Shown here: in pieces, positions 9,752 through 33,467 of the stretch | Position numbering within the stretch: position 1 is the stretch's first letter | Layout of the letters: the number at the start of each line of letters is the position of its first letter | Virus record (IMG/VR): IMGVR_UViG_3300042445_000711 | Location: 1 to 64,000 of that record | Length of the DNA stretch: 64,000 bases | Direction: 5' to 3' (one strand) | Source of the DNA: a virus | The notes under the pieces: generated by a model | The model's database searches: none | Seen by the model: only the letters and a program-made list of their open reading frames with translations | What the model was told of the DNA's origin: nothing | Made by a program: the position numbers and the translations under genes

Positions 9752-9752
9752 T

Positions 9753-13313: not shown

Positions 13314-13323
13314 AAAATATAAT

Positions 13324-16782: not shown

Positions 16783-17327
16783 GCCAACCAGAATATACAC
16801 CATACAAAGATGCACTTACAAATTCAATGAAATTTTTAGGTGAAAAATATAACACCACATTTATAGGGCAACAGGTTCTATGGGCAGGTAATCCTATGAG
16901 TACAACATTAGGAGAAGTTCCTAAAGAAAAAATGATTGAAGTTCCAGTAATGGAAGAATCTCAAATGGGAATGAGTTTAGGATTAGCAATGACAAATGAA
17001 TTTGTTATTACATTTTATCCTCGTTGGGATTTTATTATATGTGCTGCAAATCAACTTATAAATCATGTTGATAAATTACAACTAATGAGTGGTGGAGAAT
17101 GGAAAGCAAATATGATTATTAGATTAGGCAAAGGTAGTGATAAACCATTAGACCCAGGTCATCAACATAAAGGAAACTATTTTGAGCAATTCAAATCTAT
17201 GTGTAATAATATAAATTTTGTTGATTTAACTAAATGGGAAGATATTGAACTTGCTTATAAAAATGCTTACACAAATGGGGGTATCCATTGTTTAGTTGAA
17301 TACCCCGAATTGTATTATATTAATTAA
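16779..17327 (+). CDS. Thiamine-diphosphate enzyme, E1-beta/Pyr domain (compact)
   Basis: A 182-residue pyrimidine-binding domain of an E1-beta or transketolase-like enzyme. The segment EVPVMEESQMGMSLGLAM (54-71) matches the E1-beta strand and helix bearing the glutamate that activates TPP (E59 or E60). YPRWDFIICAANQLINH and PGHQHKGN follow the family pattern for the substrate channel. The C-terminal transketolase_C domain of normal E1-beta (over 320 residues) is absent. It should pair with the PP-domain protein at 10286; the two genes flank the middle of the operon. Its stop overlaps the converging minus-strand gene by 4 bp with no visible terminator. Confidence 0.85.
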   Translation: MSQPEYTPYKDALTNSMKFLGEKYNTTFIGQQVLWAGNPMSTTLGEVPKEKMIEVPVMEESQMGMSLGLAMTNEFVITFYPRWDFIICAANQLINHVDKLQLMSGGEWKANMIIRLGKGSDKPLDPGHQHKGNYFEQFKSMCNNINFVDLTKWEDIELAYKNAYTNGGIHCLVEYPELYYIN

Positions 17328-18097
17328 ATTTCCCAATGTTTTTCACGTAGTTCGTAAATATTAATTGGTTCTCTTTTCATATGATTACCTTGATTAAAGT
17401 ATGCTCCTTGTTTTAAATAACCCCCTAAAAAGTTTCTTCTAAATCTATTTGAGTTATTTGGTTCTGAACCATGTACACAATGTGAATGTAATAATACAAC
17501 TTGTCCTTTTTTAATTATACCTTCCGATTTACGAAAATTATGACCCTCAGGCATTACACAAGGTTTACCCCGTTCGTTTCTCCAAAATGATGGATTAGTT
17601 TTTGTCCTTTCCTCATCAACTTCAATGGGTAATACAGGCAATCTATGTGAACCCTCATAGTTCCATACTGCACCATTTTGAGAATCATGATTATCTAATG
17701 CTAATGCAGTATTGATTATTTCATTGTGTCCACATCCTGTGTAAAATGCATTTTGGTGCATATCTCTTCCTAATTGTCCAGGTGGTTTAAAATACGCCCA
17801 AGTTTGTAAACCATGTATCTTACCTTCCATTAGAAACTCACATGCTTCTATAATTTTTGGATGAACAAATAGCTTAGCCAACTTATCGGATAATTTATGT
17901 GGATAAGCAAATGGGTCATAATCTCCCCAAAGTTTACCATCATCTGTTGCAGTACCAATTCTTGCTAATCTTAATGTATCCAATTCTGCATTAATTTCAT
18001 CACATTCATCTTCAGTTAATAATTCCAATGTTGTAAATCCTCTGTATCTCCAATCAAATGTAATTTGTTGGATTTCTTCATTTGTAAGATGTTTCAT
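17324..18097 (-). CDS. Phytanoyl-CoA dioxygenase (PhyH)-like protein with altered iron site
   Basis: A 257-residue double-stranded beta-helix protein of the Fe(II)/2-oxoglutarate oxygenase superfamily. The core reads YFKPPGQLGRDMHQNAFY (102-119), then NGAVWNYEGSHRLPV (about 141-155), then VLLHSHCVHGSEPNNS with H209, and Arg218/220 for 2-oxoglutarate. In PhyH enzymes the first iron motif is HxD; here it is H114-Gln-N116. Asn could weaken or alter iron binding, so hydroxylase activity is uncertain. It is the last gene of the long minus-strand modification operon and converges on the plus-strand TPP-enzyme gene. Confidence 0.8.
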   Translation of the reverse strand: MKHLTNEEIQQITFDWRYRGFTTLELLTEDECDEINAELDTLRLARIGTATDDGKLWGDYDPFAYPHKLSDKLAKLFVHPKIIEACEFLMEGKIHGLQTWAYFKPPGQLGRDMHQNAFYTGCGHNEIINTALALDNHDSQNGAVWNYEGSHRLPVLPIEVDEERTKTNPSFWRNERGKPCVMPEGHNFRKSEGIIKKGQVVLLHSHCVHGSEPNNSNRFRRNFLGGYLKQGAYFNQGNHMKREPINIYELREKHWEI

Positions 18098-19200: not shown

Positions 19201-20284
19201 TATTTAATACATTTAAAATATGGTTTTTATTATTATTAAAATAATTTAAAAATTTATTTGAGTTATTATGATATTCGTGTAAATACCTATAATATATTTC
19301 ATGCAATTCATCTATACTTTTTTCAGTATATTTTTTAACATGCTCCAATCCTCTTTGAGTATCTTCTTCATCTGTTATATCATAGAATCCATACAAAGGT
19401 GAGTAAAATGTCATTCCTATTTCTTCTAAACATTTTTTTAAATTAGAAGAGCCAAAGTGTATAAATGGTAAAAATGAAGCAATTGGTTTTAATATTTTTT
19501 CAGTAACTGGACAATGTTCATTAATGTTTTTTACATCTTTAAAAAAATAAGATTCTGTAACTATTTCAAAATATGCCAAAAATTGAGAAATATATGTGTG
19601 TTTTAATACTATTGTTTCTTGATTAAATTTATCATATGAAAAAGGAATTATACCTTCATTTTCTTTAAAAAATTCATCAAGATTATGTTTTTTATCTGAA
19701 TAATATTCTTTTATTCCAGTAAAAGACCATATATTATTTTTTAAATTATCAGTTTCTTTTAAAATATTAAAAATATCAATTCTAACAGGACTAATATGAT
19801 TTGAATAAAATACCAATTTATGAGGTTTTCTAAATTCCTTATATACAGTATTCATTCTTTCCAAAAAAGATTTGGCATTTAAATAATCAGTTGATAATAA
19901 AAAATCAATTTGAGAATATAAAGAAGATGGTATGTAAAATTTATTTACACCATTAGAATGTATCATATCAAAATTTGAATAATAACATTTTTTATTTACA
20001 ATGTTAGCAAATGAAATTACACCCATCTCATCTACCATAGTTTCATTAAAATCAATTAGTATTTTATCTACTTTATTATATTTTAATTCATACTCATTTA
20101 TTACTTTACAAAATTTTTCTATATTTTTAAATTCTGTAAATGAAAATCCAAATGAATTTACCGTATTAACTAATAATACATTATTTGGTATATTTCTAAA
20201 AATATCATTTTGAGGCATATGATATTGAATATCTTCAATAATTTCTATACTTTCACCATCATTTTCGTATCTTATTCCTACCAT
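19193..20284 (-). CDS. Putative glycosyltransferase-like protein, TEKxxKP family (third copy)
   Basis: A 363-residue protein with CPVTEKILKPIASFLPFIHFG near residue 255, followed by LEEIGMTFYSPLYGFYDITDEED and a helical tail. The order of TEK motif, hydrophobic strand, G-aromatic turn and acidic stretch is shared with the plus-strand genes at 10900 and 12126. The N-terminal half shows no motif that I can name. A GT-B-type glycosyltransferase fold is the most likely reading, at moderate confidence. It shares one base (TAATG) with the preceding gene. Confidence 0.55.
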   Translation of the reverse strand: MVGIRYENDGESIEIIEDIQYHMPQNDIFRNIPNNVLLVNTVNSFGFSFTEFKNIEKFCKVINEYELKYNKVDKILIDFNETMVDEMGVISFANIVNKKCYYSNFDMIHSNGVNKFYIPSSLYSQIDFLLSTDYLNAKSFLERMNTVYKEFRKPHKLVFYSNHISPVRIDIFNILKETDNLKNNIWSFTGIKEYYSDKKHNLDEFFKENEGIIPFSYDKFNQETIVLKHTYISQFLAYFEIVTESYFFKDVKNINEHCPVTEKILKPIASFLPFIHFGSSNLKKCLEEIGMTFYSPLYGFYDITDEEDTQRGLEHVKKYTEKSIDELHEIYYRYLHEYHNNSNKFLNYFNNNKNHILNVLNNG

Positions 20285-21309
20285 TATTTAAACATTTCCC
20301 AATTTAAAACTATTTCTTCTGTAAATTTTTTATAATTACAACTACTAACGTGCCCCCAACAACTCGCTTCTCCTTCTCTTAATTTATTTTCAATTTCCGT
20401 TTGAGTACCATATTGTTCATATTCTTGAAATAACGGATTAAATTCCTCATCTGAACTTTTTAGTTGGTTTCTAACTGCCCATTCTAATACACCACCATTT
20501 CGATGTAATTGTTCTTCATTATAAAACCAACAATATTTTTCCCAATCAATTCCTTTATATAAATGAGCGGCCCATGGAAATTTATTTATTATCATATCTT
20601 CGGTATCATTCCAAGTATTGTGAATTTTTCTCTGTATAAATAAACCTTCTACCATTTCTTCTGGAGTTTGGTAATTATGTGGGACCATTCCATATTCATA
20701 TTCTAATGAAAATGGATTATGCATAAAAAAAGATTTTAATTTTATTTTGTGTAATTTACAAAATGTTATTAAATAATCAAAATATTCTAACCATTCTATA
20801 AATCTTTCTTCATCATTGTATAATGTATTTAAATAAATTTTAGTATATTCATATACTTTTCTGTTTAATTTTACAAAAGAAGATTGACTCATATCTGGAT
20901 TTGCAAAAGTTAACCAGTATCCTTTTTCTCCTGGATATTTTTTTTCATTTATAAAATCTATTGCATAGTTATCATGTTTATCCAACGGTATTCTATCTAT
21001 AATATCTTTAGATACAAAATTACTTTTTCTATGAAAGTTAGACCATTCTACTATAATTGATATATCTTCTCCTTTAATTCCTGATTTTAGTAATTGTTTT
21101 GCTTTATATATTACAGACCTTGCAATTAATAAATTACCACTACCAGGACTTCCCATATTAAATACAGTAAGTTCTGGTCTTAAAGTTTTAATCCAATGTG
21201 TATAATACCAAAATTCAGGCTTATCTGTTAAAAATTCGTCTTCTTTTCTATTAATATTTACTCTATAATGTGATGTAAATGAGCAACCAGATGTGATTAA
21301 ATGTGTCAT
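20284..21309 (-). CDS. SGNH-like protein with GCSF block I, degenerate block V
   Basis: A 341-residue protein starting MTHLITSGCSFTSHYR: a GCSF-type block I at residues 8-11. NMGSPGSGNLLIARSVIYKAK (about 55-75) resembles the Gly block, and IIVEWSNFHRKS corresponds to the block III region. The expected DxxH or DxH near the end is replaced by EEQLHRNGG, lacking the Asp. It may be an SGNH-fold protein with altered or lost hydrolysis, possibly acting as a transferase or binding protein. It lies directly before the radical SAM genes' 3' end and is probably co-transcribed with them. Confidence 0.6.
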   Translation of the reverse strand: MTHLITSGCSFTSHYRVNINRKEDEFLTDKPEFWYYTHWIKTLRPELTVFNMGSPGSGNLLIARSVIYKAKQLLKSGIKGEDISIIVEWSNFHRKSNFVSKDIIDRIPLDKHDNYAIDFINEKKYPGEKGYWLTFANPDMSQSSFVKLNRKVYEYTKIYLNTLYNDEERFIEWLEYFDYLITFCKLHKIKLKSFFMHNPFSLEYEYGMVPHNYQTPEEMVEGLFIQRKIHNTWNDTEDMIINKFPWAAHLYKGIDWEKYCWFYNEEQLHRNGGVLEWAVRNQLKSSDEEFNPLFQEYEQYGTQTEIENKLREGEASCWGHVSSCNYKKFTEEIVLNWEMFK

Positions 21310-21312
21310 AAA

Positions 21313-22527
21313 CTATATTTGTTCTTTAAAATAAATATCCCATTCTTTTAAATAATCCCCAATATAGACATTTCTTTTTTTATCTAATAATTTAATAAAA
21401 TTAATAAATTTATCCATTCCGTTTTCTTCTTCATTAGAATATAATTCCGTTTTTAATCGTTCTAATTCAAACTCATTTAAATGATTAATATTATTTAAAA
21501 GTTGTTCTTTTAATTCATCTGATAAAATAGAAACGTGTTGAAAAGATGGGTGATGAACATAATTATGAGCTACAACTAAATTATATTTGTTCGTAAATTC
21601 TTTAAATTTATCTATGTTAAAAACATTCAAACAACTAACAGTTTGACAAACTTCTAATTTAAATATATTTCTATATTTTATAATTTTTAAAAAGTTTTTA
21701 TATATTATATCCCATTTTGCACCATATCTAATATAATCATTTCGTTCTTCCAAATCATCAATAGATAAATGTAATCTTACTTGTTTAAATTGTTTCCATA
21801 TTTTAATAAAATCATCTGGAATATCCGTCATATTAATAGAGTAGTGTAAATTTATATCTTTAGACCTACCACTATCAATTAATTTTTGTAGAAAATAACC
21901 ATGCTCTCTAATTAACGTTGGTTCACCACCATTAATCCAAACTTCTTCTAATTTAGAACACTTTTCATATAATTCATCATAAAATCTTGTACTTCTAAAC
22001 CATTCGGTTCTAATATCACATTTAAAATAATTTTTTTCAAATTCAGTTCCTTTAAATACGGATACATCTTGATTCCATCTATTACTACTAAACGGATTAC
22101 AAGTTACACATTTCAAATTACAAACAGTACCCAATCTTAATTCAATATATCGATAATCTAATTCTTTTAATGAACCATCTTCATTTGTATTTGCATATGC
22201 ATGGTCTATTAAATGTTTAAATTTAAGATTACTTTCCATTCGTTTACTGTACACATTATTTTTTTCGTGGAAATAACACGTTTTGCATTGTGATGGAAAA
22301 TCTCCATTAATCATCTTCTTACGAACATCATTAAAATTTTCAGAATTTGTAATATCTGATAGTGAATCTTTATCTAAAAATAAATTAAATCCATCTTTTT
22401 TAGCAGTACTCATATCATTTGTCATATCGGTAATACAACAAGGAGTTGATGTTCCAATTGGATGTGTAGCCAAATGTATAAATGGTAATGTACAAAACGG
22501 TTTACCGTCAAATTCTGGATTTTTCAT
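21313..22527 (-). CDS. Radical SAM protein, twitch-type (copy 1)
   Basis: A 404-residue radical SAM enzyme. The [4Fe-4S] motif CNLKCVTC gives C136, C140 and C143 in the RLGTVCNLKC strand. WINGGEPTLIREHG is the GGE(P) SAM-contact motif and LHLSIDDLEERNDYIR the later beta-strand motif. N-terminal cysteines (C12, C30/C31 in STPCCITD, and C81-x2-C84 in QCKTCYFHE) could bind an auxiliary cluster placed before the barrel, as in the other four copies. Substrate unknown. Proteins of this type are known from T4-like marine phages, without an assigned reaction. Confidence 0.85.
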   Translation of the reverse strand: MKNPEFDGKPFCTLPFIHLATHPIGTSTPCCITDMTNDMSTAKKDGFNLFLDKDSLSDITNSENFNDVRKKMINGDFPSQCKTCYFHEKNNVYSKRMESNLKFKHLIDHAYANTNEDGSLKELDYRYIELRLGTVCNLKCVTCNPFSSNRWNQDVSVFKGTEFEKNYFKCDIRTEWFRSTRFYDELYEKCSKLEEVWINGGEPTLIREHGYFLQKLIDSGRSKDINLHYSINMTDIPDDFIKIWKQFKQVRLHLSIDDLEERNDYIRYGAKWDIIYKNFLKIIKYRNIFKLEVCQTVSCLNVFNIDKFKEFTNKYNLVVAHNYVHHPSFQHVSILSDELKEQLLNNINHLNEFELERLKTELYSNEEENGMDKFINFIKLLDKKRNVYIGDYLKEWDIYFKEQI

Positions 22528-23876
22528 TACACTAACGGATTTAATTCTATACTATTCCACCATTCTAATAAAGGTGGATATTGAGCATATATTTCTTCAA
22601 TTTTACCTAAATTATTTCTGTGTTTATCAATTTGTTGTAAACCTTTTTTTCCTCTAATTAAACCTTCTTTCCAATCAGGATACTGTTCTTGAAATGTTTG
22701 TTTATTTTTAATATCTTCAAAACAAGTAACATAATTTTGTATTTTTGGATTATATTTTGCTTTTCTTTTTGCGTATTCAATAATATCATCCAATATTGGA
22801 TTTAAAATATCTCTTGGTATTACCATTGGAGACATCATAATACTACTATCAAATGCAAATGTTGTTTTAATTAAAGTATGCACATCTAATTTTGCCGTAA
22901 TATCAATCATTTCTTTCATTGAAAACAAACCAGGAGCAGTTACTGTTAAATCAAATGCAATTGCGTAATCTCCAAATTGTTTATTTAAAAACAAACCATT
23001 TTTAAAATTTTCAAACCATTGCTCCCATTTTATACCATGTCTTACATATTCAACTATATCACCAATACCATCTATACTTGCGCATATCTGAACACCTTTA
23101 AAATGTGGTAGTAAATCGTACAGGTTAGTACCTTTAAACGATGTTCTACTTAAATTGGTGTTATACCTTACTATCACATCTTTTGATTGACCAGAATCAA
23201 CAAGCTGCTTCATAATATCCCAATGAATATCCCACATCAATGGCTCTCCTCCAACCCAATAAATTTCTTCTATTCTTTTTTCATTTACGGCATCCCAAAG
23301 TTCTTTCTCCGCAACTTCTGTTTGAAATTTTTCTATTATTGGTTTGAATTGCTTTTGTGCCCAAGCATCACCACCTTTATCATAGTTTCCTAACATTCTA
23401 TTTTCAGCTTCCCATGAAGATGATAATTGGTCACCACACATTCTACATTTAAAATTACAACGATTACTGATTCTATAATCAAATGATATTGGTTTCATTT
23501 CAGTATATCCTTCATCATTTGTTTTTTCAAATGCTTCTTCAATTTTATTAGGAAATAATGTTTTAGTAAAGTAATCTCTATAAATGTGTATGTTTAGTAA
23601 TTTATTATTACAAACCGCGCATTGTGGTATTTCTTCACCTGCCATTAATTTTTTACGAATATCCATCATATATGGACTGTTCCAATGTTCATCTAATGTT
23701 GCAGGTGAATACTCTGAATTAGTATCTGCTTTTTCTGAATCAATATATTGAGTTGCCCAAGTTGCTTTTTCACGACTTGCACAACACAACCTTCTTTCAC
23801 TTTGAGGAGAAAGATAGGTATGTGTAAATGGTGCTATACAAAAAGTCTTATTACCCTCTGATGGTTTTATTTTCAT
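22527..23876 (-). CDS. Radical SAM protein, twitch-type (copy 2)
   Basis: A 449-residue radical SAM protein. The cluster motif is C140-x3-C144-x2-C147 in ISNRCNFKCRMCGDQ. WVGGEPLMWDIHWD is the GGEP motif and CASIDGIGDIVEYVRHG the following strand. N-terminal cysteines C13, C31/C32 (RRLCCASR) and C86-x2-C89 (QCAVCNN) repeat the pattern of the neighbour at 21313, with which it shares its end/start bases. The pair looks like an old duplication. It may modify a peptide or a sugar; nothing nearby looks like a small ribosomal precursor peptide. Confidence 0.85.
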   Translation of the reverse strand: MKIKPSEGNKTFCIAPFTHTYLSPQSERRLCCASREKATWATQYIDSEKADTNSEYSPATLDEHWNSPYMMDIRKKLMAGEEIPQCAVCNNKLLNIHIYRDYFTKTLFPNKIEEAFEKTNDEGYTEMKPISFDYRISNRCNFKCRMCGDQLSSSWEAENRMLGNYDKGGDAWAQKQFKPIIEKFQTEVAEKELWDAVNEKRIEEIYWVGGEPLMWDIHWDIMKQLVDSGQSKDVIVRYNTNLSRTSFKGTNLYDLLPHFKGVQICASIDGIGDIVEYVRHGIKWEQWFENFKNGLFLNKQFGDYAIAFDLTVTAPGLFSMKEMIDITAKLDVHTLIKTTFAFDSSIMMSPMVIPRDILNPILDDIIEYAKRKAKYNPKIQNYVTCFEDIKNKQTFQEQYPDWKEGLIRGKKGLQQIDKHRNNLGKIEEIYAQYPPLLEWWNSIELNPLV

Positions 23877-25225
23877 ACTAAATTATTTTCAACTGACATA
23901 TCTCTAAAATTATCTAACATATCTATTATATCTTCTTGTTTTTTTACAGTTTTAATATCAGATAAATCAACAGATGGTAAAGAATGAACATCTTCTTTTA
24001 TACATATATCATTTAGCCAGGGATATAATGATTTCCAATCCGTTTTTCTCCTTATATCAATTTTATCTAAATAATCACTTAATCGTTTTAATCTCTGTCT
24101 ATCAACACCAAAATTTTCAACTTGCGTTTTAAATCCTTTTAAATATGCTTTTCTATGGTCATCTTCTGGTATAGTTGATAATAAATCATCAAAGAAATCA
24201 GAAGCATAGTGACCCAATATTTCTGGATTCATAAATGTAGGATTTGCAACAGTATTCCATCCAAAATCAACAGTTCTGATTTTTCTCCATTCTATTATTT
24301 TTCTATACAAATCACCCATTGTTGGTAATGTGACCGGTGTAATAGTTGAATGTATAGAAATACTTACTTTTGGTGAATTTAATAAAATATTAAAGTTTTG
24401 TTCCCATTCTTTTAAATCCATACCACTTCTTGCAAACTCAGCTTGTGGTCCCCAATTATCCATACTACATACAATTTCAAAAGATTGTAACTTTTTTAAA
24501 TAAATAAGTTTAGATATTCTATCTATCTTTTGTTTAAATTGTTTTGGATTATGTTTTAAATTACTAAATATTTTCCAATTTGTATTTGGATGTTCGTGTC
24601 TTTCAAAAAATTCCAAACATTCTTCAAACTCAGGTTGATACATTGGTTCTCCACCCAATATTTGAAATTGATATAAATCTCTTGAATTTTTTTCCATCCA
24701 AACCCAAAAATCTGCTTTTAATTTTTCATATTTATCTCCTGCTCTAAATCCCATTAAATCGTATTCCGTTTCCATAGGTCCGTGTTTTTCAATTTCATTT
24801 TGAATTAACGAACTGAAAAATGGAGAACAATATACACATTTTTGATTACAAACATTTGTAAAATATACCTCCAATATTCTTGGAGTTACTCTAATTTCTT
24901 TTGGGTCTATTGCCAATTCTTTTGGTGCTACTAACAAATCATTTATGTAACTTGTTCTTTCACTCTGTCCACCAGAATCTTCAATTTTTTTACAATATTC
25001 ACAACCGTTACCAGGCCATTTACCATCTAACATTTTTTTTCTATCTTCCAATTTACCAGGATGATTATGAAAATCTTGCATATGGTCTGTAACATCCCAC
25101 CCTTTGCATCTATGGCAACTTGATGATGTACCAACCGATAAAAACAATGTACTCCAAGTCCATTTAAATTGGCATGAAGTATTTGTTTTTATTGGGAATA
25201 TACTTTTACTATTATTATTTTCCAT
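23873..25225 (-). CDS. Radical SAM protein, twitch-type (copy 3)
   Basis: A 450-residue radical SAM protein with C126-x3-C130-x2-C133 in FTNVCNQKCVYCSPF, ILGGEPMYQPEFE as the GGEP motif and EIVCSMDNWGPQAEFARSG after it. N-terminal cysteine pairs SSCHRCKGW (C37, C40) and GCEYCKKIED (C75, C78) form the likely auxiliary site. The C-terminal region (about 370-450) is charged and lacks cysteines. It overlaps the copy-2 gene by 4 nt and follows copy 4 after 0-1 nt, so expression is tightly coupled. Confidence 0.85.
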   Translation of the reverse strand: MENNNSKSIFPIKTNTSCQFKWTWSTLFLSVGTSSSCHRCKGWDVTDHMQDFHNHPGKLEDRKKMLDGKWPGNGCEYCKKIEDSGGQSERTSYINDLLVAPKELAIDPKEIRVTPRILEVYFTNVCNQKCVYCSPFFSSLIQNEIEKHGPMETEYDLMGFRAGDKYEKLKADFWVWMEKNSRDLYQFQILGGEPMYQPEFEECLEFFERHEHPNTNWKIFSNLKHNPKQFKQKIDRISKLIYLKKLQSFEIVCSMDNWGPQAEFARSGMDLKEWEQNFNILLNSPKVSISIHSTITPVTLPTMGDLYRKIIEWRKIRTVDFGWNTVANPTFMNPEILGHYASDFFDDLLSTIPEDDHRKAYLKGFKTQVENFGVDRQRLKRLSDYLDKIDIRRKTDWKSLYPWLNDICIKEDVHSLPSVDLSDIKTVKKQEDIIDMLDNFRDMSVENNLV

Positions 25226-26794
25226 TTAGTTGTTTTTTATATAATCTAACATATCATCTTGAATATCTGGTTCTACATAATCTTGTGCTCCAGGATTTGC
25301 CCATTGTGGGTTTAACACCCAACCTTCTTTTTTAGCAGTTGCCATCACCTCATCAACATAACGATTCGATTTAGCATCATCACCATCTACTACCGTTGTA
25401 AGTGGTTTAATAACAGTTTCTGGAATAGAATCCCACCATTCTTTTAATTGTGGAAATGTTTCAACAAAATTCTTTTTCCTTCTAGTATCATATTGAGTAT
25501 AAAAAGATTTAAAATCTCTTTCTCTAGTTTGTAAAGATGAAGTATGTGCATGACCTGTTTCTATTTGTCTGATATATGTAACTAATCTTGTCATACTATC
25601 TTTTTCCCATTCAATAAATCCGTTCTTTTCATCATCCCAATTTTTATTAATCCATGCTTCAATTGCATCTGCTCTTTCTAAACGGATTTCTTTTGGTAAA
25701 GTTACGATTGCTTGAAATGATGGAAATCTTAAAATATTAAATGAACAAACAGGTGATTGTGTTTTATATTTAATTTTTAATTTTAACATCTCATCCATAA
25801 ATTCAGGTAAGGTAAATAAACATAATGAGTTAATTGTCATCATACAGTTTATTGATTGTACATTACCTTCGGATAACATTCGTTCTATATTTTTTAACCA
25901 ACCTTCCCAAACTAACCCATCTCTAATATATTCTGCATCTTTACCAGTTGCTTCACAAGATGTGTATAAATGAAATGATTTAACGTTATGACTTGCTTTT
26001 AATAGTTGTTCAAACAATTCTTGTTTTTGACCTAAGTTTGAATTAACTGCAAATTCAACTTCACAATCTTTATTATTTTCCCACCACTTCATTAACTTCC
26101 AAAAATCTTGTGACATGGTTGGCTCTCCACCTGTAACTCTTAATTCTCTTAATGAGTATTGTAGTTCTCCTTCCCACCATTTCCAAAATGCAGCAACGTA
26201 TGGATTACCTTCATTCTTTTTACCATACGGCATTGCATGCGCACCATCGTGTTGAAACGCACCTGCTCCATCTGATACTAAATTCTGATAAGGTCCGTTT
26301 TTCTTTATATCATTTTGCCAACTTGTAGAAAAAGATGAATTACAATATGAACAAGCAAAATTACAATTCGGGTCAAATGCAATTTCTAATGTTTTTAAAT
26401 CAACATCTTTTTCCCAATTAAATGCAGATTTACATTCAGCCAATTCCTCATCTGTATAAATTACAGATTTATGAACTCTATCTGAGATATTATCCTTACC
26501 TAAATCTTCTATCTTCCAACAATATTCACACTCTTTTGGTCTAACCCCTTCAAGCATTTGCTTTCTGATTAGCTTTTTATATTGAGTGTTGTGAATTGCT
26601 TTGTAATTCATAGCAACTTCATTTAATGGAATCTTATGTGCAGGGGGGTGATGACAACTTGCAGTTGTTCCGTTCCCTAACCATATCGTAGCGTTATACC
26701 ACTTTGCTCCACAAAATGCGGGAGAAATTGGATTTACAACTCTATCTCTATATTCTTGATAAGACTCTTCTGGTTTTTTAGCAATTATGCCCAT
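25226..26794 (-). CDS. Radical SAM protein, twitch-type (copy 4, longest)
   Basis: A 522-residue radical SAM protein. The cluster motif is C144-x3-C148-x2-C151 (DPNCNFACSYCNS). RVTGGEPTMSQDFWKLMKWW is the GGEP region, and FHLYTSCEATGKDAEYIRDG follows. N-terminal TASCHHPPAHKIP (C47) and KECEYCWKIED (C89, C92) are nearly identical in pattern to the copy at 27443, which marks these two as the closest pair. A C-terminal extension of about 60 residues (TVVDGDDAKSNRYVDE onward) is unique to this copy. A small LamG-like gene lies between the pair. Confidence 0.85.
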   Translation of the reverse strand: MGIIAKKPEESYQEYRDRVVNPISPAFCGAKWYNATIWLGNGTTASCHHPPAHKIPLNEVAMNYKAIHNTQYKKLIRKQMLEGVRPKECEYCWKIEDLGKDNISDRVHKSVIYTDEELAECKSAFNWEKDVDLKTLEIAFDPNCNFACSYCNSSFSTSWQNDIKKNGPYQNLVSDGAGAFQHDGAHAMPYGKKNEGNPYVAAFWKWWEGELQYSLRELRVTGGEPTMSQDFWKLMKWWENNKDCEVEFAVNSNLGQKQELFEQLLKASHNVKSFHLYTSCEATGKDAEYIRDGLVWEGWLKNIERMLSEGNVQSINCMMTINSLCLFTLPEFMDEMLKLKIKYKTQSPVCSFNILRFPSFQAIVTLPKEIRLERADAIEAWINKNWDDEKNGFIEWEKDSMTRLVTYIRQIETGHAHTSSLQTRERDFKSFYTQYDTRRKKNFVETFPQLKEWWDSIPETVIKPLTTVVDGDDAKSNRYVDEVMATAKKEGWVLNPQWANPGAQDYVEPDIQDDMLDYIKNN

Positions 26795-27453
26795 TAATAA
26801 ATTATTTTATGTAAAAAGTTGCAATTATGTGAATTATCAAAAACTTTATAATCGGTATGTTTTTTAAAATTATATAAACCAATTATAGATGTATCTAAAT
26901 TACCATCTTCCTTAATATTATATATCTGATTATAAGATTTATATTCTTTTGAAATCATTAAAAAATCTAATTCGTAAGAACAATAATTTAAGTTAAATCC
27001 ATTATGTGGAAAATTACCACCACCAAACAAAATATGTGGTTCATATCCAACACTTAACTCTTCATCATATTCTAACTTATATTCTATAGCAGATATGTCA
27101 TTAACTAAAAAATCTAATATACGATTTACTTTATTATATCTAAACGATAATAAATTAAAATCATAACCAATTTCTGTTTCAGAAAATAAATATTTCCATT
27201 CGGTTTCTCCGTTTTTATTTAAATTGAGAATCAACATTAAATTATTGTTTTCTTTCTCAATATCTAACCCCATATAATTTGGAAGTTTTGCAAATACTGT
27301 TTTTTTTTCTGATGATTTTGTTAATATTTTTATGTTCATAGATAACGTAAAATCAGTATCACCCTCAAAAGTTTTACCAATCTCACCCGTATTTATTCCA
27401 TATGAAACCATATTTGGCCATAACAACCAAGGTTCTCCTTCTTTAATTATCAT
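26794..27453 (-). CDS. LamG-like (concanavalin A-fold) beta-sandwich protein
   Basis: A 219-residue protein composed mainly of alternating beta-strand patterns: FTLSMNIKIL, LLSFRYNKVNRILDFLVND, then HILFGGGNFPHNGF and YELDFLMISKEYKSYNQI. This order (ligand-facing strand, WxHVA-like middle strand, and a G-rich turn before a final strand and helix) is that of LamG or laminin-G-like sandwiches and resembles the C-terminal domains of the two GT7 proteins encoded upstream at 28835 and 30247. It has no catalytic motif. It may bind the glycan or peptide handled by the adjacent radical SAM proteins. It overlaps the copy-5 gene by 11 nt. Confidence 0.55.
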   Translation of the reverse strand: MIIKEGEPWLLWPNMVSYGINTGEIGKTFEGDTDFTLSMNIKILTKSSEKKTVFAKLPNYMGLDIEKENNNLMLILNLNKNGETEWKYLFSETEIGYDFNLLSFRYNKVNRILDFLVNDISAIEYKLEYDEELSVGYEPHILFGGGNFPHNGFNLNYCSYELDFLMISKEYKSYNQIYNIKEDGNLDTSIIGLYNFKKHTDYKVFDNSHNCNFLHKIIY

Positions 27454-28834
27454 ATTTGATTTTTTTATAAAACTCCTCTAATTCTGGAAATGTTTTTAAG
27501 AAATTAGTTCCTCTTCTTTTATCATGCTCATCTACAAATTTTACGAAATCTTTTCTATTTGTTTTTAAAATATTTGCATCCGTTTTTGATAATGACCAAT
27601 CATATATTCGTTTTATCTTTTCGGTTTCAACTTCGGTCATTCCCATATGAGTATTTGTAAAAATTGGAACACCTAAATATAAAGCAGTTTTAGCATTATC
27701 TAATATAAGTTCTTTTTGTTTATCAAATAATAATTTAACACTTTGGTGTTGTGGAAATCTTAAATAAGATGTATCTAATAATATAGGATGTTGCCAATAT
27801 CTTTCTAAATTTTGATGTTCTTTTTTGGTTTCCCAAACTTTTTCTATTAACTTATTATAACTAAATGGACTTAAAATATTATAAGTAGACATTATGGTTA
27901 TTGTAACTTTTGGTAATTTATAAAGTACTTTGTTTACATTATCCCAAAATTTATTAAAATTCAAACCATTACGAATATATTCAGCTTGTTCACCATATGC
28001 ATCAACTGATGTAAAAATAATAACTTCTTTAATTCTATCTTCCGAAATTATTCTGTCTAATTTTTGAATTAATTTATCAATTAGTTCATCGGTAACTCCT
28101 AAATTTGAATTAATTGCCAATTTTAATTCTTTGTTTGGATTTGGGTGTTCTAATATATAATCCAAAACTTTCCAAGTATCTTTTGATAAAAGTGGTTCTC
28201 CACCGGTAATTCTAAATGTATTTAAATCAGAATATAATTCAGGCCACCATTTCCAAAATGCTTCAACAAAAGGATTGTATTCACTTTGTAATATTGGCAA
28301 TCTATTTTTTTCAATTAACTTACCGTAACTGTTAAATGAATCTGTAGTTGGATACCCTCCTAATTGTTTTACTTCTTGCAACCATTGTGATGAATATTCA
28401 GGTCCACAATATGAACACTTAAAATTACAAGTATTAGAAAAACTAACTTCAACATATCTTGGATTAAAATCCGCTCTCCAATCTGATTGTATAATTTCAT
28501 CTAAATGTGGTTTAGACCAGGGTTCCGATGATTTATAAATTCTATCGGAATAATTATCCGAATTATCTTCAATATTCCAACAGTAATCACATTCTTCTGG
28601 TCTTTTACCATCTAACATTTCTTTTCTCTTATACTTTTTAAATTTAGTATTATGAAGTGCGGATGGATTTCGTTGTATTTCTGCTATTGGAATTTTATGA
28701 GCAGTTGGGTGGTGGCAAGAGTGATTAAGACCAGTTTGTAAGTGCATGGTTACCTGTGTCCATTTTGCTAAACAAAACCCACAACCTACTGAATCTAAAC
28801 TTTTTTTTGTTTCTTCAAATATATTATTTTGCAT
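27443..28834 (-). CDS. Radical SAM protein, twitch-type (copy 5)
   Basis: A 463-residue radical SAM protein. The cluster motif is C136-x3-C140-x2-C143 (SNTCNFKCSYCGPEYS), FRITGGEPLLSKDTWK is the GGEP motif, and IIFTSVDAYGEQAEYIRNG follows. N-terminal HSCHHPTAHKIP (C40) and ECDYCWNIED (C82, C85) match copy 4 closely. It is the first of the five to be transcribed, immediately after the GT7-LamG genes. The five-copy run with alternating auxiliary domains suggests an ordered multistep modification, though no substrate is apparent. Confidence 0.85.
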   Translation of the reverse strand: MQNNIFEETKKSLDSVGCGFCLAKWTQVTMHLQTGLNHSCHHPTAHKIPIAEIQRNPSALHNTKFKKYKRKEMLDGKRPEECDYCWNIEDNSDNYSDRIYKSSEPWSKPHLDEIIQSDWRADFNPRYVEVSFSNTCNFKCSYCGPEYSSQWLQEVKQLGGYPTTDSFNSYGKLIEKNRLPILQSEYNPFVEAFWKWWPELYSDLNTFRITGGEPLLSKDTWKVLDYILEHPNPNKELKLAINSNLGVTDELIDKLIQKLDRIISEDRIKEVIIFTSVDAYGEQAEYIRNGLNFNKFWDNVNKVLYKLPKVTITIMSTYNILSPFSYNKLIEKVWETKKEHQNLERYWQHPILLDTSYLRFPQHQSVKLLFDKQKELILDNAKTALYLGVPIFTNTHMGMTEVETEKIKRIYDWSLSKTDANILKTNRKDFVKFVDEHDKRRGTNFLKTFPELEEFYKKIKYDN

Positions 28835-30250
28835 CTATAATTTTACATTTATCATAACCGAATTTTCATCCAATTGTTCTATATTAACTAATTCGTATTT
28901 TAATGTACTCAAACCATCGTTTTTATAATCAATTTTATCTTGTTGCATTTCTAAAACATATCTTCTTTCGTTTCTGGCAGTTGTTTCTCCCTTTGCCCAT
29001 TTTTCAATACCACCCACATTAATTAACCCCTCTGTTCTATGTGGTAAACATAAGAATTTTCCATTTCTTCTATGCGGTAATATGGTGTGAGGAATTTCAA
29101 TGAGTTCATTTTTATATTCAACATTTGTAGATTCTCCAAAATCTAACGCCATAGTACAAATATCCAATACTAAATTTTCTTCTGGAGTATTAGTGTGTAG
29201 ATTTTTTATTTCTATTGGAGATAAACATCTATCCCATAATTTTATTTCAGCAATAGCACCTTTAAAATATGATTCGGTAGGGGATTTAGAATATCCAATA
29301 CAAAACGGCTCAAACCCATATCTTTTTAAATTTTCAGTAAAATGCAATGGAGATTGAGTACCAGTACCTAATCTTGCATCACTTTCTTTTCCGTTTAAAT
29401 AAAAATGTATTTTTTTATTATCATTATCAACTGCCATTGTTACCCAACTCCATTGATTTTCATATCGTTTAATCCATTGATATAAATGTTGTTTGGTTCT
29501 ATCCCAAAGTTGCATTGTATATGCTCTACTATTATTAAATGATAATCCCCAATCGTAACCAGGTTTTCTGAATATTGGATACTCTACAAATTGTCTTTCA
29601 GAATCTCCAATTAACCAAATAGGAACTTTTTCTATTTGTTGGTCTGCCTTTACTAATACAGAAATTGTGTGAGATTTTGATAAACACTCTCTTTGTTCAA
29701 TTGAAGGTCTGAATTTTATTTTTGAATCAATACCATTAAAATATCCTACAACTCTTTCCTCACTATATTCTAATTTTGTTTTATTAGCATATCCTTCTTT
29801 TACACATCTCCAAAATAAGTCATCATCCTCCATACCCCAATCCCAATAATCGTTAGAATAACCATTTGTTCTTTCTACTTGTTCTTTTGAGAATATAACT
29901 GCACCACCGAAATACTCTTCGTATTTTAGTTGATAATCTGATTGTGAGATACGAACTGCTATGTGTTGGGGGTTATCATTAGGAAACGAATAATCGCAAG
30001 TGTCATCCTCTGGAACCATATCTATATCGTGCCATACAATGTAATCACATCCATCTTCAAATGCGTGTTTAGCTGCTATATTTTTCATAGCACCTCTGTT
30101 AAACAACTTATCATCTACTTGATGTGCAAAATATATTTTAAAATCAATATTGGCTTCTTTTAAAAATTTAGAAACCGTTGGTATAAATTGTTTTAAATGT
30201 TGTTCTCTATTTCTATATGGAACACATACACCTAATTTATGTTTCGTCAT
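28835..30250 (-). CDS. GT7-like glycosyltransferase fused to a LamG-like domain (copy 1)
   Basis: A 471-residue two-domain protein. Residues 1-165 form a GT-A domain of the beta-1,4-galactosyltransferase (GT7) type: LGVCVPYRNREQHLKQF, FNRGAMKNIA, the metal motif HDIDMVPED (D75-x-D77), YFGGAVIFSKEQ and DWGMEDDDLFWR (137-148), the last being the family's WGGEDDD signature. From about residue 170 (GYFNGIDSKI) to about 390 follows a LamG-like beta-sandwich with SHTISVLVKA, WVTMAVDNDNKKIHFYLNG and GAIAEIKLWDRCLSP. This lectin-like domain may hold the acceptor. The gene overlaps its paralogue at 30247 by 4 nt. Confidence 0.85.
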   Translation of the reverse strand: MTKHKLGVCVPYRNREQHLKQFIPTVSKFLKEANIDFKIYFAHQVDDKLFNRGAMKNIAAKHAFEDGCDYIVWHDIDMVPEDDTCDYSFPNDNPQHIAVRISQSDYQLKYEEYFGGAVIFSKEQVERTNGYSNDYWDWGMEDDDLFWRCVKEGYANKTKLEYSEERVVGYFNGIDSKIKFRPSIEQRECLSKSHTISVLVKADQQIEKVPIWLIGDSERQFVEYPIFRKPGYDWGLSFNNSRAYTMQLWDRTKQHLYQWIKRYENQWSWVTMAVDNDNKKIHFYLNGKESDARLGTGTQSPLHFTENLKRYGFEPFCIGYSKSPTESYFKGAIAEIKLWDRCLSPIEIKNLHTNTPEENLVLDICTMALDFGESTNVEYKNELIEIPHTILPHRRNGKFLCLPHRTEGLINVGGIEKWAKGETTARNERRYVLEMQQDKIDYKNDGLSTLKYELVNIEQLDENSVMINVKL

Positions 30251-31680
30251 ATTCCTACATTAATATGCATTATTTTATTACTATGATGAAATTTACTATG
30301 TTCAATAAATTCCAAAGTTGATAATCCATCGTTTTTTATTAATTCATAATTGTGAAAAACTTCATTTTGAAATCTTAACTGATTCCATCTTGTAGACTGG
30401 TCTTTCCACCCATTTCCTAAAAATCCATTTTCTTCGTGTTTTAATAATCTAAAAGTACATTGTCTTCTATGAGGTATTTTAACTTCTGTAAATTCTGGAT
30501 ATTCCTCATCAACTATTTCACAATTTACAATTTTACCTTCTAATCCACTATTTGTTATATCTAATAAAGTATAATATTCTATTACATTTGCATCAAAATA
30601 CGTTTTTAAAGAATTATTTGATTTATAATTACCAAAAGGTTTCATTAATGATTTTGTTTCATTTGTTGAAATTTCTAATATTTCTTCATCTGATAAAACA
30701 TCATCAAAATATGCAAAAGTAGATATTGTACCTTTAAAATGATTTGGTATAGTTTCTCTTCCAGGTTTACCTGCTCCTAAATAAAATTTTGGTTCTTTTC
30801 TATAAAAATGTAATCTTTTAAACTTTTCAGTTTTGCCAATAAAAACACCATCCTGATATAATCTAATTGTATTTTCGGTTTTATCTAATACTACTGCAAT
30901 AGTTGTTTTGTATCTTGGTTTTATTTCTGAATTTATAAAATACGAATTATGTTCTGTATCGAATGCACAAAAATTATACCTAGAAAATGAATTATAACAA
31001 ATAGCAAAATCCCAACCAGGAATACTAAATACAGTAAACTCATCGGTTGGTTTTGTATGGTCTAATGGTTTTTCTTCTGGATAAAAATTTATAAAAAAGG
31101 TTGCATTATTATTTAAGTTAATAACATTATTACATTCAATATATGAATCGATACCATTAAACTTTAATGCTTTTCCCTTTCTACCTATATTACGAATTTT
31201 AAATGTGTCTAAATCAACTTTATTAACTTTACATCTTAATAACAAATCAGTATCTTCAAATCCCCATCCCCAATATTTGTTAGAGTAACCATTTATTTTT
31301 TCAAAATCTTTTACTGGAAATAATGTAACTCCACCAAAATATTCTTGAAAAGTATCTCTTTTTTTCTCATTGTTTTCTAACACAAAATTAGTTGCAAGAT
31401 GTAGTGGTTTATCCGAATACGAATAATCTACATCAACTGGCAACATATCAATATCGTGGAACACTACATAATCACATCTAGCTTTTAAAGCATAATTAAA
31501 TCCTATATTAAGTAATGTTCCTCTATTAAATTGTTTTGCATCATCCTGGTCAACTATGATGATTTTATGTTCTATATTACGAGAGATTAGGTAATTGGAC
31601 ATATAATCCAAAAACACCTTTAATTGAGTTTCTCTTCTTCTATATGGAACAATAACACCAAGTCTATGTCTATCCATCAA
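30247..31680 (-). CDS. GT7-like glycosyltransferase fused to a LamG-like domain (copy 2)
   Basis: A 477-residue paralogue of the gene at 28835 with the same order. The GT-A domain has LGVIVPYRRRETQLKVF, FNRGTLLNIG, HDIDMLPVD (D76-x-D78), FGGVTLFPVKD and YWGWGFEDTDLLLR (136-149). The LamG-like domain begins near residue 172 (KFNGIDSYIECNN), with NNNATFFINFYPEE, TIAVVLDKTENTIRLYQDG and GTISTFAYFDDVLSDEE. The second acidic site is EDTD, not EDDD as in copy 1, so the two may differ in donor or acceptor. Tandem duplication is likely. Confidence 0.85.
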   Translation of the reverse strand: MMDRHRLGVIVPYRRRETQLKVFLDYMSNYLISRNIEHKIIIVDQDDAKQFNRGTLLNIGFNYALKARCDYVVFHDIDMLPVDVDYSYSDKPLHLATNFVLENNEKKRDTFQEYFGGVTLFPVKDFEKINGYSNKYWGWGFEDTDLLLRCKVNKVDLDTFKIRNIGRKGKALKFNGIDSYIECNNVINLNNNATFFINFYPEEKPLDHTKPTDEFTVFSIPGWDFAICYNSFSRYNFCAFDTEHNSYFINSEIKPRYKTTIAVVLDKTENTIRLYQDGVFIGKTEKFKRLHFYRKEPKFYLGAGKPGRETIPNHFKGTISTFAYFDDVLSDEEILEISTNETKSLMKPFGNYKSNNSLKTYFDANVIEYYTLLDITNSGLEGKIVNCEIVDEEYPEFTEVKIPHRRQCTFRLLKHEENGFLGNGWKDQSTRWNQLRFQNEVFHNYELIKNDGLSTLEFIEHSKFHHSNKIMHINVGI

Positions 31681-31858
31681 TTGTTGGGTCTTTTGGTTTT
31701 GCTACTTTATGCCATTCAGCTAAATAATATTGTGCTCTATCACTCCACTCTTGTTTGTCAATTTCTTCAAACCAAACTGTAAGCGCATCTAATGTAGAAG
31801 CAATTTTTTCTAATGCTTTTACTTTCTTTTTTTCTAATTCAAATTGTTCTTCTGTCAT
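31670..31858 (-). CDS. Small hypothetical protein (62 residues)
   Basis: A short helical protein: MTEEQFELEKKKVKALEKIA, then TLDALTVWFEEID and QYYLAEWHKVAKPKDP. It overlaps the GT2-like gene upstream by 4 nt and the GT7 gene downstream by 11 nt, a packing typical of genuine genes in this operon. No motif is recognised. An accessory or coiled-coil partner for one of the flanking glycosyltransferases is possible, but nothing shows it. Confidence 0.6.
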   Translation of the reverse strand: MTEEQFELEKKKVKALEKIASTLDALTVWFEEIDKQEWSDRAQYYLAEWHKVAKPKDPTIDG

Positions 31859-32703
31859 ATTGATATTATTTGTTTAATTAATTGTTCCCACTTTGAATAC
31901 CCTAAATAATGATAAGTTGGTGATAATTCAAACCCAAACCTTTCATCATCTAATGGTAATTTAAATCTATACTTTGATAATGCTCTATACATAACTCTGT
32001 ATTCTTCCGAATATGAGTAATCTTTATTTTGATTTGCAACGTGCCTAATTCTACCCGCGCAAGTACTATCCCATTTAAAATGATGAACTTGTACATTATA
32101 CATTTCAATTGGTGCAATTAAAGGATGCTTCCAACCTTGCCATTTCCAAGTTGTATGTCCATCTATCTTTGCATAATGTTGTCCGTTTGTAATCTCAACA
32201 TATCCTTTTGCAATACAAATCTTATTAGGATTTGCACCACTTAATGGGTGTCTAAAAAATCCAGCATATGGAAACTTTTCGAATATATCATCTGTATCTA
32301 ATAACTCAACCATCTCCCCATCTACACCAATTCTATCTACGAATCCACCTCTAACCATATCCCATCCATTCATATCGCAAGCTGCTATAATAGATTTAAG
32401 TGAATACGAATAAGAGTGAAACTCATCATCATCTGATATTACCCACCAATCATTAGGATGCGAGGATTTAACTTCGTTGTAAAGTTTAGTTACTTTTTCC
32501 CAATTATATAATTCTTCAACTACTACTTTTACTATTTTAGCATTTCGAAATTGAGATACGATATTTTGAACCTCTGCTAAATTGGATTGCTCTTCCCAAT
32601 CATACACAACGATATGCATTTCATCCACCATATCTGTATAGTGGTTTAACATATGTTTTAATGTTGTTGTTCTAGAACCTGTTACTGTAACTAATCTAAT
32701 CAT
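31855..32703 (-). CDS. GT-A type glycosyltransferase (GT2-like)
   Basis: A 282-residue protein that starts MIRLVTVTGSRTTTLKHMLN, a GT2-like first strand and helix, and carries WWVISDDDEFHSY with D91-D93 as the metal-binding DxD, plus a later HHFKWDST segment with a His that could be the second metal ligand. The sugar donor cannot be inferred. It is coupled by 4-nt overlaps to the methyltransferase upstream and the 62-residue gene downstream. Confidence 0.75.
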   Translation of the reverse strand: MIRLVTVTGSRTTTLKHMLNHYTDMVDEMHIVVYDWEEQSNLAEVQNIVSQFRNAKIVKVVVEELYNWEKVTKLYNEVKSSHPNDWWVISDDDEFHSYSYSLKSIIAACDMNGWDMVRGGFVDRIGVDGEMVELLDTDDIFEKFPYAGFFRHPLSGANPNKICIAKGYVEITNGQHYAKIDGHTTWKWQGWKHPLIAPIEMYNVQVHHFKWDSTCAGRIRHVANQNKDYSYSEEYRVMYRALSKYRFKLPLDDERFGFELSPTYHYLGYSKWEQLIKQIISI

Positions 32704-33467
32704 TTTCTTCTAACTAATGTAAGACCTGTTGATGATGGTTTATTTTTTACTATTCCAAAGTTAAATAAATCAAATGTTTCCCATTTTGGATTTTCTTTTA
32801 ATTCTTTTACAAACTGAATAGGACCATTCCAATCTTCGTGGTCATTTCTATCTTTAACTTCGTTTGTAACTAAGTAACTATCCGCAAAATTAGGGTCAGT
32901 ATCGTGAATAGAAATAATTCCATTTCGGGATAAGAGTTGGGAATATAATTCAAAATCTTCTTTAACATTTTCATAACTGTGTCCTGCATCTATATGTAAG
33001 TAATCAATTTTAATATCATTTAATACAAAAAAATTATGGAATGCTTCTTCTGTAGTAGTTCCTAAAATACGAGGATGAAAGGTTCTTCTAAAAAATGATT
33101 CTTCTTTGAACCAATCTACCTTACCACCAATGCCATTCATAGCATCAACTACATAAGTAACCCCAATATCTCCCCAATTTAAGTTAGCATCACCTTCAAA
33201 TATACCTTGTCTGTATAAATCATATCTTGCCTGAGTCATTAATCTAGGCACAAAACCCCCACCACTACCTAAACAAACGCAAACTTTTGCTCTCATATAC
33301 TGAATAAGAGAATAAATAATTAAACCATCTCCTAAATGAGTATCAGTTGCTCCATGTGACCATCTGTATGGAACTGGTATTACTTCTTCTTCCTGATGTT
33401 CATTGAATTCTAAATTATTTGTTAAGTAACTTTTTAAGTAGTGTATATCTTGTAGTACTGGTAGCAT
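32700..33467 (-). CDS. Class I SAM-dependent methyltransferase (Methyltransf_24-like)
   Basis: A 255-residue protein with a Rossmann-type motif I VCLGSGGGFVPR (about 64-75), YLHIDAGHSYENVKEDFE (156-173) and NGIISIHDTD (182-191). The last two segments are the motifs of Methyltransf_24/cephalosporin-hydroxylase-like enzymes, where Asp and His near DxxHSYE and HDT line the active site. O-methylation of a sugar is the natural guess. A host-type promoter candidate lies 35 nt upstream (33502-33533), so this gene may open an independently expressed modification operon running to 17324. Confidence 0.85.
   Translation of the reverse strand: MLPVLQDIHYLKSYLTNNLEFNEHQEEEVIPVPYRWSHGATDTHLGDGLIIYSLIQYMRAKVCVCLGSGGGFVPRLMTQARYDLYRQGIFEGDANLNWGDIGVTYVVDAMNGIGGKVDWFKEESFFRRTFHPRILGTTTEEAFHNFFVLNDIKIDYLHIDAGHSYENVKEDFELYSQLLSRNGIISIHDTDPNFADSYLVTNEVKDRNDHEDWNGPIQFVKELKENPKWETFDLFNFGIVKNKPSSTGLTLVRRK

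What the first reader, a model, noticed from the sequence alone, without database searches (positions are those of the whole stretch)
21313..28834. Five consecutive radical SAM proteins with conserved N-terminal cysteine pairs
Seen: five products with CxxxCxxC, GGEP and a shared set of earlier cysteines (SCHHP or CC pairs, and CxxC 45-60 residues before the cluster). Two copies (25226 and 27443) are close relatives and enclose a LamG-like gene. Known: single phage-encoded radical SAM proteins of this kind occur in marine T4-like phages; their substrates are unknown. Inference: a stepwise modification of one target, with the N-terminal cysteines for a second cluster or substrate binding. No small precursor peptide was found nearby, which favours sugar or protein substrates.
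Basis: partly seen in the sequence, partly recalled or inferred. Interest (0 to 1): 0.68.

Follow-up and report, generated by a model that had tools for sequence, protein, structure and literature searches.

The report
Phage radical-SAM and glycosyltransferase gene cassette
A marine T4-like phage carries five different radical-SAM enzymes in one operon with its tail-fibre and sugar-transferring genes; related phages keep the same enzymes in the same order, which suggests an assembly line that chemically edits a surface sugar chain, but the target and the reaction are still unproven.

Summary
Five intact radical-SAM genes lie at 21313-28834 on the minus strand: four in a row, then a LamG gene, then the fifth. 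All five pass the curated cut-off of one NCBI family, NF033640 (N-terminal twitch radical SAM). The early cysteines form a C-X18-C...CX2C twitch motif, kept in 223 of 225 viral relatives, so the 'second cluster' idea is supported. The array is not unusual: IMG/VR phages carry 1-7 such genes in a row, and Bdellovibrionota carry up to 20 per genome. Earlier papers noted multiple radical-SAM genes in T4-like phages. What appears new is the organisation. The five are old, distinct orthologues kept in a fixed order across phages. They sit directly behind glycosyltransferase genes in the tail-fibre operon, and LamG modules are fused both to glycosyltransferases and to the first radical-SAM enzyme. 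Best reading: an assembly line in which transferases build a glycan (on the tail fibre, or on the host surface) and the radical-SAM enzymes oxidise or otherwise edit its sugars. Substrate class is inferred; the reaction is unknown.

The parts
27443..28834 (-). Radical-SAM enzyme 1 (orthogroup H, 'position 1'), N-terminal twitch
   Evidence: NF033640 351 bits; AF2 model pLDDT 95.1, pTM 0.92; L016 orthologue 76% identical
26794..27453 (-). Free-standing LamG-like (ConA-like lectin) protein between radical-SAM 1 and 2
   Evidence: No Pfam hit alone; hhalign 99.2% / 1.3e-19 to the LamG part of the GT7 fusions and 98.8% to the LamG part of LamG-rSAM fusions; orthologues at the same place
25226..26794 (-). 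Radical-SAM enzyme 2 (orthogroup A)
   Evidence: NF033640 304 bits; follows position 1 in 45 of 45 ordered pairs; dN/dS 0.03 against L016
23873..25225 (-). Radical-SAM enzyme 3 (orthogroup Q, the most divergent)
   Evidence: NF033640 223 bits; orthologue in L068 51% identical
22527..23876 (-). Radical-SAM enzyme 4 (orthogroup E)
   Evidence: NF033640 316 bits; 80% identical to L016; downstream of A in 19 of 19 pairs
21313..22527 (-). Radical-SAM enzyme 5 (orthogroup K)
   Evidence: NF033640 328 bits; Pfam SPASM on residues 12-85, E 1.2e-5
28835..30250 (-). GT7 (beta-galactosyltransferase-like) glycosyltransferase fused to LamG, directly upstream of rSAM 1
   Evidence: Glyco_transf_7N/7C and Laminin_G_3 above cut-off
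30247..31680 (-). Second GT7-LamG fusion
   Evidence: Glyco_transf_7N/7C and Laminin_G_3 above cut-off
31670..31858 (-). Conserved 62-aa protein, part of the core cassette
   Evidence: Matches in 22 of the rSAM-baited viral loci plus L091; as bait, 58 of 58 assessable loci carry the rSAM
31855..32703 (-). Cassette protein c8, possibly a GT2-like transferase (DDD motif); no family match
   Evidence: No Pfam or significant PDB sequence hit; conserved place
32700..33467 (-). Methyltransferase (Methyltransf_24)
   Evidence: E 1.5e-10; conserved place
33501..34490 (-). Probable GT-B-like glycosyltransferase (by inspection only)
   Evidence: No library hit; conserved place in part of the class-1 loci
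34487..37921 (-). Tail-fibre-type structural protein with S74 chaperone domain, head of the operon
   Evidence: Peptidase_S74; PHROG minor head / tail protein
20284..21309 (-). SGNH-hydrolase-like protein by N-terminal motif, downstream of the array
   Evidence: Motif only; no Pfam family above cut-off
17324..18097 (-). PhyH-type 2-oxoglutarate dioxygenase, last gene of the apparent operon
   Evidence: PF05721 E 4.3e-18

Best explanation
The array is a glycan-tailoring assembly line in the phage's host-recognition operon. Glycosyltransferases (two GT7-LamG proteins here; a GT-A enzyme plus GT8 enzymes in sister phages) build a short glycan, most likely on a phage tail-fibre or other virion protein, otherwise on the host envelope. 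The radical-SAM enzymes then act one after another on sugar units of that glycan. Position 1 is part of the basic cassette; A, Q/D, E and K/C are add-on steps. Each uses its CX3CX2C cluster to cleave SAM and abstract a hydrogen, and a second 4-Cys cluster in the N-terminal twitch domain as electron acceptor, giving a two-electron oxidation (alcohol to ketone, as in BtrN) as the likeliest chemistry. LamG modules, fused or free, would hold enzymes on the carbohydrate. Shown: family, cysteine motif, intact reading frames under constraint, order, operon-like packing, GT linkage, LamG fusions. Inferred: glycan substrate, virion target, oxidation.
For: (1) Order: position 1 precedes A in 45 of 45 pairs, A precedes D 21:0 and E 19:0, D precedes E 13:1. 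Window genes group with their counterparts in L016, L019, L049 and L068, not with each other. (2) GT link: the gene directly upstream of the first rSAM is GT7-LamG or the cluster-1 GT in 66 of 80 loci. Cluster 1 folds as a GT-A enzyme; its best PDB match is the PBCV-1 capsid-glycosylating transferase, with weak TM-scores. The GT8-like neighbour matches glycogenin at E 7e-8. (3) Bait control: starting from the 62-aa gene, all 58 loci with enough sequence carry GT7s followed by rSAM. (4) LamG is fused to GT7 and to position-1 rSAM in L021, L025 and L028. (5) In Bdellovibrionota the same GT family abuts a twitch rSAM at 3 places (G034:C85, G043:C15, G038:C183). (6) Genes from the tail fibre to 17324 overlap or nearly touch. 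(7) Exactly seven cysteines are invariant, four twitch and three SAM, so no conserved cysteine is left as H-donor; BtrN has a fully ligated auxiliary cluster and oxidises a sugar alcohol (PMC9012708).
Against: No substrate is shown. Fold search is non-committal: AprD4 (sugar) and SuiB (peptide) come out level at E 2e-4 to 5e-4 with TM-scores near 0.3. In most Bdellovibrionota the nearest relatives lie in housekeeping neighbourhoods without a GT. Published authors read such GTs as host O-chain modifiers (PMC7029224).
Confidence: 0.5

Rival explanations
1. Same enzymes, but the target is the host envelope glycan (O-chain): the phage remodels the receptor to block superinfection or re-adsorption of progeny.
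For: Authors of the pelagimyophage study read GT8 genes in this island as O-chain modifiers (PMC7029224); genes 8780-17327 encode sugar epimerases and a dTDP-sugar isomerase.
Against: The cassette is packed with tail-fibre genes in one apparent operon; no membrane polymerase or flippase was recognised among the genes scanned.
Confidence: 0.28
2. The enzymes modify protein side chains directly, e.g. epimerise or cross-link residues of the tail fibre.
For: SPASM/twitch enzymes commonly act on peptides; SuiB is among the top folds; a tail-fibre-type gene heads the operon; one Bdellovibrio relative sits between flagellin genes.
Against: Does not explain the tight GT and LamG coupling; no conserved H-donor cysteine is left over.
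Confidence: 0.13
3. RiPP-type system: the conserved 62-aa protein (31670-31858) is the precursor modified by the radical-SAM array.
For: Small, conserved (invariant W38, R41, Y45; W29 in 99%), always in the cassette.
Against: Conserved in the middle and variable at both charged ends, no conserved Cys, no leader/core pattern; absent from class-2 arrays with orthologous rSAM genes; no protease or exporter was recognised among the genes scanned.
Confidence: 0.07
4. Neutral paralogue expansion without a joint function.
For: Copy number varies from 1 to 7 per array.
Against: Deep orthologous lineages, fixed order, intact motifs, low dN/dS.
Confidence: 0.02

Closest known systems
NF033640 N_Twi_rSAM (NCBIfam subfamily, twitch domain-containing radical SAM protein)
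   Same: All five score above the curated cut-off over nearly the full model
   Different: The model's name gives no reaction or substrate; the fixed-order multi-member array with GT-LamG partners is not part of its name or description as shown here
Pelagimyophage host recognition cluster with radical-SAM cassettes (Zaragoza-Solas 2020, PMC7029224)
   Same: Tail fibres, GT8 glycosyltransferases and radical-SAM genes in one variable structural island; class-2 loci here look like it
   Different: The window phage's baseplate wedge protein is closest to Flavobacterium phage immuto (39%), with GT7-LamG instead of GT8; gene order, orthology and LamG-rSAM fusions were not found described in the passages read
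T4-like TARA_ERS488813_N000010 with 12 radical-SAM genes and an A-type Fe-S carrier (Nishimura 2017, PMC5332604)
   Same: Many radical-SAM genes plus a phage Fe-S carrier; this phage also has one, at G000:C1:66480-66794
   Different: That paper counts the genes as Fe-S users; the passages read give no twitch subtype, order or glycan link
BtrN (twitch radical-SAM sugar-alcohol dehydrogenase)
   Same: One auxiliary cluster site with four cysteines and comparable motif order
   Different: BtrN's twitch is C-terminal (own knowledge); here it is N-terminal, and sequence similarity is below detection
PBCV-1 capsid glycosylation (transferase of PDB 2p6w)
   Same: Virus-encoded transferase that decorates a virion protein; best fold match of the cluster-1 GT
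   Different: PBCV-1 infects algae; weak TM-score (0.28-0.40); no radical-SAM enzymes in the comparison

Membership tests
NF033640 N_Twi_rSAM | Score above the curated 170-bit cut-off over most of the model | tested here: met
   328, 316, 223, 304, 351 bits; models covered 1-4 to 391-398 of 398
Radical SAM superfamily | CX3CX2C SAM-cluster motif and GGE motif | tested here: met
   All five; 224 of 225 viral paralogues have CX3CX2C, 219 of 225 GGEP; three of five pass the Pfam PF04055 cut-off, two fall short of it
Twitch domain (half-SPASM) | Cys before a beta-hairpin, Cys after it, then CX2C after helices, giving one auxiliary cluster | tested here: met
   C-X18-C-X34..53-CX2C in 223 of 225; model: strands 27-31/36-38 between C21 and C40, helices 50-74, C82/C85 in helix 80-91; topology as in PMC6231123
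Twitch domain (half-SPASM) | Cysteines actually bind a [4Fe-4S] cluster near the active site | not testable with these tools
   No coordinates or protein available; needs EPR or Mossbauer
BtrN-type sugar-alcohol dehydrogenase | Detectable homology and dehydrogenation activity | tested here: inconclusive
   No BtrN hit by sequence profile or among the listed fold hits; the listing follows sequential alignment and is handicapped by the permuted domain order; activity not testable
Viperin-type antiviral enzyme | NF038283 curated cut-off 180 bits | tested here: not met
   25.5 bits at best
RiPP maturation system | Precursor peptide with conserved leader and variable core next to the maturase | tested here: not met
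   62-aa protein conserved in the middle, variable charged ends, absent from class-2 arrays
GT7 glycosyltransferase (28835, 30247) | Pfam Glyco_transf_7N and 7C above gathering score | tested here: met
   67-77 bits against cut-offs 27 and 23
Pelagimyophage host recognition cluster | Pelagibacter T4-like phage, island between VrlC and gp14 genes | tested here: inconclusive
   Tail fibre and GTs adjacent; nearest baseplate match is a Flavobacterium phage; VrlC and gp14 not located

The most novel reading that the evidence does not exclude
Marine phages, with Bdellovibrionota as cellular relatives, run a previously undescribed radical glycan-editing assembly line. Ordered N-twitch radical-SAM enzymes tethered by lectin modules carry out successive C-H activations on one glycan displayed on the phage's receptor-binding protein, producing sugars not made by nucleotide-sugar pathways.
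Probability: 0.27. Interest if true: 0.85.

Novelty: new variant of a known kind. Interest (0 to 1): 0.6.

Why it matters
NF033640 carries no assigned substrate. A fixed gene order, GT partners, LamG fusions and a defined minimal cassette (methyltransferase, c8, 62-aa protein, two GT7-LamG, one rSAM, LamG) give a testable substrate class and a seven-gene expression set. If the enzymes act on glycans attached to a fibre, they would be a rare case of radical chemistry on a polymer-bound sugar, and a new way for phages to alter adsorption or mask their surface.

Tried and rejected
Isolated phages: no relative of enzymes 1 or 2, of the cluster-1 GT, of GT7-LamG or of the 62-aa protein in 50,697 records; enzymes 4 and 5 only match Vibrio phages of about 250 kb and one marine contig at 23-28% identity. 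Viperin-like antiviral role: scores far below cut-off. RiPP precursor: small-ORF clustering found one cassette peptide, judged not precursor-like. T4 late promoter TATAAATA: 18 sites against 21 expected, 17 on the strand opposite to most genes, so no promoter claim is made. PDB sequence searches for c8 and the GT-B-like protein gave nothing. Model coordinates were not returned, so cluster distances could not be measured. Literature linking radical-SAM enzymes with tail-fibre glycosylation or LamG transferases: nothing on point found in the library.
Full report
WHAT IS THERE. The window is bases 1-64000 of a 75.6-kb IMG/VR virus record, 29% GC, T4-like (SbcC-like nuclease subunit, primase, baseplate wedge). 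Five radical-SAM genes lie at 21313-28834 on the minus strand, with a LamG gene at 26794-27453 between the first two in transcription order. All five pass the curated cut-off of NF033640, 'twitch domain-containing radical SAM protein', and no sixth exists in the record. A second contig is 99.99% identical over 9.3 kb (window 32977-23673), covering the GT7 genes, the first two radical-SAM genes and nearly all of the third.

CYSTEINES. Besides CX3CX2C and GGEP, every window copy has C-X18-C, then CX2C, then about 50 residues to the SAM motif; the same holds for 223 of 225 viral paralogues collected here. In 55 aligned position-1 and A proteins exactly seven cysteines are invariant: four early, three SAM. 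Pfam SPASM matches residues 12-85 of the 21313 product. The AlphaFold model of the 27443 product is confident (pLDDT 95.1, pTM 0.92) and shows a beta-hairpin between C21 and C40, then helices, with C82/C85 at the start of a helix, the twitch layout described for BtrN and SkfB in PMC6231123. The second-cluster reading is therefore supported; cluster binding itself is not shown. With four cysteines the auxiliary site would be fully ligated as in BtrN, which oxidises a sugar alcohol (PMC9012708), and no invariant cysteine remains as an epimerase H-donor; oxidation is thus the likeliest chemistry, by inference.

THE ARRAY IS WIDESPREAD AND ORDERED. A scan of IMG/VR gave at least 562 encoding stretches; 80 loci were kept. 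Arrays hold 1-7 members. A tree of 225 proteins and a 66-row maximum-likelihood tree split the five window genes into old lineages: H and A are related, Q stands far apart on a long branch, E and K belong to the other half. Each groups with its counterpart in other phages. Order strings give window H-LamG-A-Q-E-K; L019 H-LamG-A-E-K-C; L049 G-A-E-K; many others B-A-D-E-C or B-A-D-C-E. Pairwise, position 1 precedes A 45:0, A precedes D 21:0, A precedes E 19:0, D precedes E 13:1. dN/dS against the nearest orthologues is low where measurable (A 0.03, K 0.21, Q 0.32); H and E have saturated synonymous sites with pN/pS 0.21 and 0.15. This speaks against a recent, neutral expansion.

NEIGHBOURS. In 66 of 80 loci the gene directly before the first rSAM is one of two unrelated glycosyltransferase families. 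Class 1, like the window, has GT7-LamG fusions. Class 2 has a 308-aa protein whose model (pLDDT 85.8) matches mostly GT-A glycosyltransferases, first the PBCV-1 capsid-glycosylating enzyme (E 5e-4, TM 0.28-0.40), preceded by GT8-like genes (glycogenin, E 7e-8). Tail-fibre-type genes lie further upstream in 44 of 53 loci with 8 kb or more of upstream sequence. In the window the genes from 34490 down to 17324 overlap or are at most 33 bp apart, except a 174-bp gap filled by the 62-aa ORF, and the tail-fibre ORF (34487-37921) overlaps the first of them by 4 bp.

LAMG AS A LINK. LamG modules occur at the C-terminus of both GT7 proteins, as a free gene after position 1, and fused to the N-terminus of position-1 rSAM in L021 (two copies), L025 and L028; profile comparisons join all three kinds (hhalign 98-99%). 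One module shared by transferase and radical enzyme argues for one carbohydrate-containing substrate. L069 fuses two radical-SAM enzymes in one frame.

THE MISSED SMALL GENE. ORF 31670-31858 (62 aa) is conserved in the class-1 loci. Used as an independent bait it gave 68 loci; 58 hold the radical-SAM gene downstream of the GT7 genes, and the other ten appear to stop at a contig end before that point. The core cassette is methyltransferase - c8 - 62 aa - GT7-LamG - GT7-LamG - rSAM, usually followed by a LamG gene, with further rSAM genes optional. The protein is conserved in the middle and variable at its charged ends, unlike a leader-plus-core precursor, and class-2 loci lack it, so it is not the general substrate.

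CELLULAR RELATIVES. One scan of genome contigs found close relatives mostly in Bdellovibrionota MAGs; 19 genomes carry 1-20 copies each. In most, the neighbourhood is ordinary chromosome, but at three places the cluster-1 transferase family abuts a twitch rSAM (G034:C85, G043:C15, G038:C183), which repeats the GT link outside phages. Position-1 and A types co-occur in L107 and L108. One Bdellovibrio MAG has a two-rSAM fusion between flagellin genes, a single case.

WHAT WAS KNOWN. Nishimura et al. 2017 reported a T4-like genome with 12 radical-SAM genes and an A-type Fe-S carrier (PMC5332604); this phage too has such a carrier at 66480-66794 of its record, and 7 of 25 related contigs do. Zaragoza-Solas et al. 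2020 described radical-SAM cassettes in a host-recognition island with GT8 genes (PMC7029224). Neither text, in the passages read, gives the twitch subtype, the orthologue order, the LamG fusions, the 62-aa gene or the Bdellovibrionota link.

VERDICT. The function proposed here, glycan tailoring in the host-recognition operon, rests on gene linkage and fusions; the target (virion or host surface) and the reaction are inferred. Fold searches do not decide between sugar and peptide substrates.

Noticed in passing
window 31670-31858 (-): 62-aa conserved gene (invariant W38, R41, Y45) always in front of the GT7-LamG pair; not found in 50,697 isolated phage records.
   Followed up: yes
G000:C1:66480-66794 (outside the window): A-type Fe-S carrier (PF01521, 58 bits), which may serve the radical-SAM enzymes.
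   Followed up: partly
window 10286-10915 and 16779-17327 (+): Split E1/transketolase halves flank two NAD-dependent epimerase/dehydratase genes and SGNH-like genes; together with an epimerase and a dTDP-sugar isomerase at 8780-10289 this looks like an unusual nucleotide-sugar pathway. Bdellovibrionota locus L105 has E1-like and epimerase genes next to twitch rSAM genes.
   Followed up: no
window 60917-62611 (-): Nol-like carbamoyltransferase (PHROG 1601), recurring downstream of rSAM arrays in many loci.
   Followed up: partly
L129:4142-8629 and L130:4116-8951: Giant Bdellovibrionota ORFs (1495 and 1611 aa) with an N-terminal twitch rSAM and a long C-terminal part of unknown nature.
   Followed up: no
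L131/L132 (G034:C192): Cellular array of about 13 twitch rSAM genes mixed with Asp/Asn beta-hydroxylase and other 2-oxoglutarate oxygenase genes.
   Followed up: partly
L095:8695-13514: Two-rSAM fusion gene between flagellin genes in a Bdellovibrio MAG; possible flagellin modification.
   Followed up: partly
L016:8551-9708: A radical-SAM gene of another family (cluster 13; the L034 member has C-terminal cysteines) takes the slot that Q has in the window.
   Followed up: no
L006:20784-20903, L020:16734-16850, L049:16037-16141: A 34-39-aa basic ORF ending ...KLxELRKRDPFIYK recurs in 18 viral loci.
   Followed up: no
window, 18 sites: TATAAATA occurs 17 times on the + strand and once on the - strand although most genes are on the - strand.
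   Followed up: no
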